From assembly GCF_037996765.1 (NCBI RefSeq), contig NZ_JBBNAD010000005.1, positions 32,001 to 96,000 of the forward strand: a stretch of DNA of 64,000 bases, given 5' to 3'. The translations under genes and the position numbers were made by a program. The DNA is from Bdellovibrio sp. GT3. Lineage in GTDB: Bacteria; Bdellovibrionota; Bdellovibrionia; Bdellovibrionales; Bdellovibrionaceae. Shown piece after piece: positions 7,625 to 9,010 of this stretch. Under the pieces are notes generated by a model, which did no database searches, was not told the origin of the DNA, and saw only the letters and a program-made list of their open reading frames with translations. Position 1 is the first letter of the stretch. Each line of letters begins with the position of its first letter.

Positions 7625-7651
7625 TCAACTCTCCAAAAGTCCAGCCGATAG
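7625..7651 (+). promoter_or_regulatory. FliA (sigma-28)-type promoter
   Basis: TCAA at 7625-7628, exactly 15 bases, then GCCGATAG at 7644-7651. The enterobacterial FliA consensus is TAAA-N15-GCCGATAA, so this matches 3 of 4 and 7 of 8 with perfect spacing. Transcription would start near 7658. A fliA gene is present at 43.6-44.4 kb. Confidence 0.6.
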
Positions 7652-7695
7652 GTATGACATCAGCCCACTGCGAGTGGGAGCGAAAGGAGCCTTGA

Positions 7696-7785
7696 ATGGC
7701 ATCAACGCATGTAGTACTTCACGAATTCATTCTTTCTACGGAGATTCGTGAATTGGTAACTTACCGGGAGACCGGACCACCGTAA
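7696..7785 (+). CDS. Possible 29-aa small protein
   Basis: ATG 7696 to TAA 7783-7785 encodes a 29-residue peptide (MASTHVVLHEF at the start, ETGPP at the end). AAAGGAG at 7683-7689 is 6 bases upstream, a well-placed ribosome site, and the frame is closed just before the terminator. No membrane segment or known family is visible. The 9-bp hairpin lies inside the coding region, so selection may act on RNA structure instead. The ORF may be incidental. Confidence 0.4.
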   Translation: MASTHVVLHEFILSTEIRELVTYRETGPP

Positions 7786-7830
7786 CTACCATCCCCCTAG
7801 CCTAGTAATAGAGGGAGAATATAAATAAAA

Positions 7831-7870
7831 AAAACCAGAACGATCTCTACGTTCTGGTTTTTTGTTTTTT
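7831..7870 (+). terminator. Strong intrinsic terminator, probably bidirectional
   Basis: A 12-bp perfect stem, AAAACCAGAACG (7831-7842) and CGTTCTGGTTTT (7850-7861), with a 7-base loop and a T-rich tail to 7870. A-runs on the left side allow it to end the leftward barrel gene at 7893 as well. Confidence 0.85.
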
Positions 7871-7892: not shown

Positions 7893-8843
7893 CTAAAGGA
7901 TTGAGAACGTCGTTGCGAAATTCACCGTCGTTGAATCTGCCGTCAGAGTGTCTGGATAGAAATTTAAAAACGGCGCAAAGAAAATGTCCCGGCGAATTGC
8001 ATATCCCAAACCCAATCGGGAACTCAAAGTACGGTTCCACAAAGTAAATGCATCTTCAGTCCCGCGTGGATTATTGAAGCCCACAGCCACGGACGAGTAC
8101 ATGCTGAACTTATCTGAGAAGTTGTATTTCACCTGCGGGAAGAAGGCCACAGAGTAACGGCCGGTCTTCATTTCATATTTGTTTTTAACATTCGGACCGC
8201 GATCAAAGAAGTAATAGTCAAAAGAGGCATCAACCCCTGCCGCAAAACCCGTAGTCCCAAAGTTATAAATCAAAGAAGAGTCATAGCCAAAAGCTGCGTA
8301 TTCCCCGATTTCACGGAATGTTTGATTCGTTACGTAAGTCCCCTTAACGCCATTTCGCATTTGGAGTTCTCCAACGCGAGAACTGCGGTCGACGCCCAAA
8401 TAGGGATTTCTAACATCATAACGTTTCACACCCTGGAACGGCGTTAAAGCACTCGCCCCGGTACCGACCGACAAAGCCGTTTTTGAATCAAAGCGATAAC
8501 GAGCACTCAGGGAACCACCCAGAGACGTTTCGCAGGCACAAATACTGCCATCGGGATTAGGTTGATTGGGGTTGGATAGATCACCCACTGGAGGCCCCGA
8601 GTAGCTAAGGCTGGCTTTTAGAGAGTAGCGGGAAAGAGATCCTGACTCCGCCTTCATACGCGCATCCGTGATGTCTTTGTCTTCGGCGAATTTCTTATTG
8701 ATGACGCTTTCTTGTTTTAGTACGGAGCTTTGCTCTGCTGGGGCTGATCCTGAAGTGGACTCAGGCATGATAATTTTAGAAGTTTGTGCAAAAGCACTGA
8801 TTGAAAACCCCAAAACGGCTGAAACCAAAATCAATTTGCTCAT
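7893..8843 (-). CDS. Outer-membrane beta-barrel protein, hypothetical
   Basis: A 316-residue protein with a signal peptide ending SAFAQ. After a variable Ser/Glu-rich N-terminus (to about residue 75) it shows alternating hydrophobic/aromatic strands (for example YSVAFFPQVKYNF and FSMYSSVAVGF), with Asn/Gly turns and a terminal strand ending in a hydrophobic residue (FATTFSIL), as expected for a barrel inserted by BAM. Two cysteines (ICACE) sit near the first strands. Start at ATG 8843 because AGGGGAGA lies just upstream; an ATG seven codons earlier lacks a site. No function can be assigned. Confidence 0.75.
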   Translation of the reverse strand: MSKLILVSAVLGFSISAFAQTSKIIMPESTSGSAPAEQSSVLKQESVINKKFAEDKDITDARMKAESGSLSRYSLKASLSYSGPPVGDLSNPNQPNPDGSICACETSLGGSLSARYRFDSKTALSVGTGASALTPFQGVKRYDVRNPYLGVDRSSRVGELQMRNGVKGTYVTNQTFREIGEYAAFGYDSSLIYNFGTTGFAAGVDASFDYYFFDRGPNVKNKYEMKTGRYSVAFFPQVKYNFSDKFSMYSSVAVGFNNPRGTEDAFTLWNRTLSSRLGLGYAIRRDIFFAPFLNFYPDTLTADSTTVNFATTFSIL

Positions 8844-9010
8844 GAAATCTCCCCTGATGGGCATGCTTGTACAGTGGGAGACCCCAAAAAGATAGTTGGG
8901 TTTTGGTTAAGAGAGCATTCTTTAAAAAAAGTACCTGCTTTTTATCGACCCCCATTGCCCCAAACGAGGCAACTCTGTGAACCTAATAGAACCAAACAAA
9001 AGGGGCATTC

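What the first reader, a model, noticed from the sequence alone, without database searches (positions are those of the whole stretch)
7625..7870. Structured FliA-type transcript with an embedded 29-codon ORF
An excellent sigma-28-like promoter (TCAA-N15-GCCGATAG) precedes a roughly 210-nt segment packed with hairpins (6-bp, 9-bp and several shorter) and closed by a 12-bp terminator. It also contains a 29-codon ORF with a well-placed AAAGGAG. Seen directly: promoter match, hairpins, ORF, terminator. Inference: an abundant swimming-phase RNA, possibly a small-protein mRNA, a regulatory RNA, or both. Bdellovibrio merRNA, a massively expressed attack-phase c-di-GMP RNA, shows that such transcripts exist; I could not match its GEMM core here.
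Basis: partly seen in the sequence, partly recalled or inferred. Interest (0 to 1): 0.78.

Follow-up and report, generated by a model that had tools for sequence, protein, structure and literature searches.

The report
Attack-phase RNA encodes conserved 29-residue protein
A short gene in a Bdellovibrio predatory bacterium, whose counterpart RNA in the reference strain is the second most abundant small RNA of swimming cells and was described as non-coding, turns out to carry a 29-amino-acid protein kept by natural selection in every Bdellovibrio genome examined.

Summary
The window is from a Bdellovibrio genome. A sigma-28 (FliA)-type promoter (7625-7651), a Shine-Dalgarno site, a 29-codon ORF (7696-7785) and a terminator form one self-contained unit. 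Orthologues occur in all 24 genomes of the genus searched and, diverged, in three other genera of the family. In the genome that matches strain HD100, the orthologue coincides in place and strand with APsRNA5 (PMC3627812: 388,842 RPKM in attack phase, 73 in growth phase, second only to merRNA). APsRNA5 was published as non-coding and without a FliA promoter; both statements look wrong. Codon evidence is strong: 68% of single-base codon differences are synonymous, against 25 +/- 7% in column permutations, with no stops. The 'packed hairpins' are not conserved; only the terminator covaries across the genus. An unexpected extra: the codons of E-x-R-E-L (GAG-x-CGT-GAA-TTG) are frozen even at synonymous sites, unlike flanking genes, so an RNA- or DNA-level element probably overlaps the ORF. 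The protein (consensus MAxxxVVRHExILxxEIRELxLHxETGPP) has no Pfam, NCBIfam or PDB relative. Best reading: an attack-phase mRNA for a new small protein, possibly with a second RNA-level role. What the protein does is inference.

The parts
7625..7651 (+). FliA (sigma-28)-type promoter, TCAA-N15-GCCGATAG, with a conserved spacer
   Evidence: same promoter in all 24 orthologues of the genus and in G035; one such site per genome in the five where the long form was found
7657..7682 (+). 5' leader with hairpin CCCACTgcgAGTGGG (7664-7678); start of transcription inferred near 7657-7660
   Evidence: the arms are replaced together in near relatives (CCCAC/GTGGG, GCCAC/GTGGC, TCCAC/GTGGA); most other species lack this hairpin
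7683..7689 (+). Shine-Dalgarno AAAGGAG, 6 nt before ATG
   Evidence: conserved in all 24 genus members and G035, in the forms AAAGGAG, AAGGAGG or GAGGAGG
7696..7785 (+). 29-codon ORF, MASTHVVLHEFILSTEIRELVTYRETGPP*
   Evidence: homologues in 33 genomes; 68% synonymous among single-base codon differences against 25 +/- 7% in permuted columns; no internal stops
7740..7755 (+). GGAGATTCGTGAATTG block in which synonymous sites are frozen across the genus (proposed overlapping RNA- or DNA-level element)
   Evidence: GAG 24/24, CGT 23/24, GAA 24/24, TTG 24/24; in flanking genes 0 of 29 two-fold, 0 of 10 Leu and 0 of 9 Arg invariant columns have a single codon
7831..7861 (.). intrinsic terminator (12-bp stem, A run before and T run after), probably bidirectional and shared with the convergent gene at 7893-8864 (-)
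   Evidence: 5 of 9 counted pairs have compensatory changes

Best explanation
This is a self-contained gene: a sigma-28 (FliA) promoter drives a roughly 205-nt mRNA that is translated from a strong Shine-Dalgarno site into a 29-residue cytoplasmic small protein and ends at an intrinsic terminator. It is the orthologue of APsRNA5 of B. bacteriovorus HD100, so APsRNA5 is an mRNA (at least in part) rather than a non-coding RNA. Shown here: promoter, ribosome-binding site, ORF and terminator conserved together; protein-level selection; restriction to four genera of one family. Taken from the literature: massive, attack-phase-specific abundance in HD100. Inferred: the protein, predicted to be a short helix (VVRHExILxxEIREL) followed by an ETGPP tail, accumulates in swimming cells and works by binding a partner protein or complex through the helix face and the conserved E..E.REL....ETGPP residues; its supply ends when FliA-dependent transcription stops on prey entry. 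Likely as an addition: the frozen GGAGATTCGTGAATTG block has a second, nucleotide-level role.
For: Homologues with promoter, SD and ORF in all 24 genus genomes (own included) and G035; diverged homologues in g6 and g8 with FliA-like promoters. Codon test: 0.678 synonymous against 0.249 +/- 0.070, 0 of 1000 permutations reach it, 0 stops against a mean of 23; other forward frames 0.18-0.20; median dN/dS 0.36. G and P codons at the C-terminus use 3-4 synonyms while the amino acids are invariant. Length changes are whole codons (27-31 aa). The stop codon itself varies (TAA, TAG, TGA). Only the terminator covaries. Orthologue ORF at G006:C1:605512-605598(-) lies inside APsRNA5, 605,441-605,617(-), 388,842 RPKM in attack phase against 73 (PMC3627812); the coordinate match is supported by the c-di-GMP-I aptamer found inside the published merRNA interval of the same contig. 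No co-directional gene directly downstream.
Against: No ribosome profiling or mass spectrometry: the recent HD100 proteome reports that small proteins are under-represented (PMC12546842), so translation is inferred. The published 5' end of APsRNA5 (605,617) lies 24 nt downstream of the -10 box, not about 7, and Table 2 of PMC3627812 does not mark a FliA promoter for it; processing or a block at the leader hairpin would explain this but was not tested. No family or structural match indicates a function. The partner-binding role is inference only (about 0.4 on its own).
Confidence: 0.85

Rival explanations
1. Dual-function RNA: it makes the small protein and also acts as RNA, through the frozen GGAG[AC]TTCGTGAATTG block, by pairing with another RNA or binding a protein such as a GGA-binding regulator.
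For: Synonymous sites frozen in that block but free in the TGPP codons and in flanking genes; GAG and GAA are each fixed at their own place, which simple codon bias does not explain; extreme abundance of the HD100 RNA.
Against: No compensatory changes in the only obvious partner, the in-ORF CACGAAT arm, which is broken in several lineages. Antisense matches elsewhere look like chance or lie on the strand opposite to the mRNA, as in a pilB-like gene. The block is only partly kept in g6 and g8.
Confidence: 0.35
2. Non-coding regulatory RNA as published for APsRNA5; the ORF is fortuitous.
For: Published as such; no peptide reported so far.
Against: Codon-level selection, frame-preserving length changes, conserved SD and start, no conserved fold.
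Confidence: 0.04
3. Arrest (stalling) peptide: the conserved Gly-Pro-Pro at or near the stop stalls ribosomes, and the stalled ribosome or the RNA is the functional output.
For: GPP immediately before the stop in all 24 genus members, and Gly-Pro-Pro conserved in the other genera.
Against: In G035, g6 and g8 the tail is often extended (PPG, PPVG, PPMG, PPN, PPRPASKNG); the stop codon is not conserved; there is no downstream gene to regulate in cis in the window.
Confidence: 0.08
4. A merRNA-like c-di-GMP reservoir.
For: Same expression class in HD100.
Against: No GEMM or any Rfam match here; merRNA is a separate locus in this genome.
Confidence: 0.01

Closest known systems
APsRNA5 of Bdellovibrio bacteriovorus HD100 (PMC3627812)
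   Same: Orthologous: same sequence family, same neighbours (Nudix gene upstream, outer-membrane-type gene convergent downstream), ORF inside the published transcript on the same strand
   Different: Published as non-coding and without a FliA promoter; here it has a conserved ORF and a FliA-type promoter
merRNA (HD100), with c-di-GMP-I riboswitch RF01051
   Same: Short, extremely abundant attack-phase RNA from an intergenic gene (published for HD100)
   Different: No aptamer here; separate locus in the same genome
Bacterial dual-function sRNAs (such as SgrS/SgrT; from general knowledge)
   Same: Small abundant RNA with a short SD-led ORF; possible second nucleotide-level constraint
   Different: No RNA target or pairing region demonstrated; the ORF fills the centre of the transcript
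Leader or arrest peptides ending in proline (TnaC type; from general knowledge)
   Same: Short ORF ending in Pro
   Different: No downstream gene under control; tail and stop codon vary

Membership tests
APsRNA5 orthologue group | Coincides in position and strand with APsRNA5 in the HD100-like genome | tested here: met
   ORF G006:C1:605512-605598(-) within 605,441-605,617(-); coordinate frame checked with the merRNA aptamer
APsRNA5 orthologue group | Attack-phase-specific abundance in the window's species | not testable with these tools
   No expression data for this species; HD100 data only (PMC3627812)
FliA (sigma-28) regulon | Promoter close to TAAR-N15/16-GCCGATAA | tested here: met
   TCAA-N15-GCCGATAG, conserved in all 24 genus orthologues and G035; TAAA-N15-GCCGATAG in a g6 member
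FliA (sigma-28) regulon | Transcription depends on FliA | not testable with these tools
   Needs 5'-end mapping or FliA binding data; the published HD100 5' end lies 17 nt downstream of the position expected
Translated small-protein gene | Codon-level purifying selection with conserved SD, start and frame | tested here: met
Translated small-protein gene | Peptide or ribosome footprints detected | not testable with these tools
   No such data held; small proteins under-represented in the HD100 proteome
Structured regulatory RNA | Conserved base pairs with compensatory changes outside the terminator, across the genus | tested here: not met
   (in-ORF helix: 0 of 7 pairs with compensatory change); a leader hairpin is kept only within subclades
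c-di-GMP-I riboswitch / merRNA | GEMM aptamer | tested here: not met
   the genome's own aptamer is elsewhere
Dual-function RNA | Nucleotide-level constraint beyond the protein code, with a function | tested here: inconclusive
   Synonymous lock found, its cause unknown; no target found
Arrest/leader peptide | Regulated co-directional gene directly downstream | tested here: not met
   Downstream gene is on the opposite strand in the window; neighbours vary in others
Any known protein family | Match in Pfam, NCBIfam or PDB sequences | tested here: not met

The most novel reading that the evidence does not exclude
The second most abundant attack-phase sRNA of Bdellovibrio is a bifunctional gene: it makes a new 29-residue protein family (helix plus ETGPP tail) and its coding sequence carries an overlapping RNA element. 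In related genera the same transcript carries a further conserved 5-7 codon ORF ending RPDI, so the RNA would be a dedicated platform for tiny proteins of the swimming predator.
Probability: 0.3. Interest if true: 0.8.

Novelty: new member of a known kind. Interest (0 to 1): 0.64.

Why it matters
If translated in proportion to its RNA, this would be one of the most heavily produced proteins of swimming Bdellovibrio, and it appears in no protein-family library searched. It makes a direct test possible of what an obligate predator produces in bulk while it hunts, and it shows that at least one RNA listed as non-coding in the standard HD100 transcriptome is very probably an mRNA. It also argues that other attack-phase 'ncRNAs' should be re-read for small ORFs.

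Tried and rejected
Rfam at gathering and relaxed thresholds: nothing credible. Conserved RNA fold: rejected apart from the terminator. In-ORF hairpin CACGAAT/ATTCGTG as the cause of the synonymous lock: rejected, since the left arm is broken in several lineages without compensation while the right arm stays frozen. Trans target of the frozen block: the best repeated near-match is a pilB-like ATPase gene, on the wrong strand. Pfam, NCBIfam and PDB sequence searches: no relative. Homologues outside the family: none at E <= 0.01 among 369 genomes of the phylum apart from one partial match (0.009) judged chance. The RPDI mini-ORF was looked for in the genus of the window and not found. AlphaFold2 gives a helix at residues 4-18 with mean pLDDT 70 and pTM 0.28; a fold search was not run because a lone helix is uninformative. 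No paper beyond PMC3627812 mentions APsRNA5 in the library searched.

Full report
What is there. The window lies in a Bdellovibrio genome (G000, 3.58 Mb; the same promoter in named records is always from Bdellovibrio). At 7625-7651 stands TCAA-N15-GCCGATAG, at 7683-7689 AAAGGAG, at 7696-7785 a 29-codon ORF ending in TAA, and at 7831-7861 a 12-bp terminator.

Is it more than chance? The promoter motif alone occurs 13 times in the genome (3 for the reversed control), and the fold without terminator is only weakly better than shuffles (z -2.0). Neither would decide the matter. Conservation does. A DNA search found relatives in most of the 23 other genomes of the genus, and a protein profile found the ORF in all of them, in G035 of another genus, and, with a wider profile, in six genomes of genus g6 and two of g8. 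Nothing else in 369 genomes of the phylum is convincing. In all 24 genus members and G035 the order promoter, SD, ORF is the same, and most of the promoter spacer is conserved as well.

The ORF is a gene. Consensus MAxxxVVRHExILxxEIRELxLHxETGPP. Of single-base codon differences among 22 distinct sequences, 68% are synonymous; permuting columns gives 25 +/- 7%, and none of 1000 permutations reaches the observed value. There are no internal stops, against a mean of 23 in permutations; the other forward frames give 18-20%; median dN/dS is 0.36. Length changes are whole codons; the stop may be TAA, TAG or TGA. The permutation test does not correct for phylogeny, but the contrast between frames of the same alignment does not depend on it.

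It is not a conserved RNA fold. RNAalifold on 19 orthologues keeps the terminator and two short pairs. The terminator has compensatory changes in 5 of 9 counted pairs; the hairpin inside the ORF (CACGAAT with ATTCGTG) has none in 7 and is broken in several lineages. A leader hairpin in front of the SD exists in the window's subclade and in the HD100 subclade, where its arms change together, but not in most of the genus.

It is the orthologue of APsRNA5. The genome G006 has one contig of 3,782,950 bases, the length I remember for B. bacteriovorus HD100. The published merRNA interval on it holds a c-di-GMP-I aptamer on the right strand, which supports the identity. The ORF orthologue at 605,512-605,598 (-) lies inside APsRNA5, 605,441-605,617 (-), reported with 388,842 RPKM in attack phase and 73 in growth phase, second to merRNA (PMC3627812). 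That paper calls it a non-coding sRNA and does not mark a FliA promoter. The sequence has one, TCAACTATCCAAAGGTCTGGCCGATAA, whose -10 box ends 24 nt upstream of the reported 5' end; a start about 17 nt upstream of the reported one, followed by processing or a block at the leader hairpin, would reconcile the two (inference).

An unexpected layer. Within the ORF the codons GAG, CGT, GAA and TTG of E-x-R-E-L are frozen (24, 23, 24 and 24 of 24 genomes), while the Gly and Pro codons of the tail use three to four synonyms. In the two flanking genes, none of 29 two-fold, 10 Leu or 9 Arg invariant columns has a single codon. Codon bias is a poor explanation, because Glu is GAG at one place and GAA at another. 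The in-ORF hairpin does not explain it, and no trans target was found. An overlapping RNA- or DNA-level signal is likely; what reads it is unknown.

How it most likely works. FliA-dependent transcription gives a large amount of a short mRNA in swimming cells, which is translated from a strong SD into a small cytoplasmic protein with a predicted helix (residues 4-18 in a 30-residue member, mean pLDDT 70) and a conserved ETGPP tail. Small proteins of this size usually act by binding a larger partner (general knowledge); that is the mechanism proposed, and it is inference. No library match suggests the partner. There is no co-directional gene after the terminator in the window, so a leader-peptide role is unlikely. 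Stalling at Gly-Pro-Pro is possible but is weakened by tail extensions in other genera.

Relatives with two ORFs. In g6 and g8 the transcript carries, before the ETGPP ORF, a second SD and a 5-7 codon ORF ending Arg/Lys-Pro-Asp-Ile (MPGRPDI, MPSRPDI, MASRPDI, MPGKPDI, MAQRPDI, MRPDI). It was not found in the genus of the window.

Novelty. The RNA is known in HD100; its coding content, the protein family, the FliA promoter and the synonymous lock were not found described in the papers searched. It is a new member of a known kind: a small-protein mRNA, perhaps dual-function.

Noticed in passing
L070-L077 (genera g6, g8), upstream of the ETGPP ORF: A second SD followed by a 5-7 codon ORF ending RPDI or KPDI (for example MPGRPDI, MRPDI) on the same FliA-type transcript; absent from the genus of the window.
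   Followed up: partly
L080 (HD100-like merRNA region) and L138 (merRNA region of the window's genome): merRNA also carries an AGGAGG-led mini-ORF: MRTHEHHDDELK in HD100, MKHRIHDHHDEAPK in the window's species; conservation not tested further.
   Followed up: partly
L133, L136, L137 (HD100-like APsRNA2, APsRNA6, APsRNA7): Other published attack-phase 'ncRNAs' contain ORFs with ribosome-binding sites: 15 codons in APsRNA2, about 90 with a hydrophobic stretch in APsRNA6, about 72 in APsRNA7. They may be small-protein mRNAs too.
   Followed up: no
window 7740-7755: Synonymous sites frozen across the genus inside the ORF; cause unknown.
   Followed up: partly
window 7629-7643 (promoter spacer): The 15-nt spacer of the FliA-type promoter is nearly as conserved as its boxes, which is unusual and may mark a further regulator's site.
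   Followed up: no
G025 and other g3 genomes: The protein was not found in genus g3, whose member G025 has the contig length I remember for the epibiotic predator B. exovorus JSS; a link with periplasmic invasion is possible but the identity was not checked.
   Followed up: no
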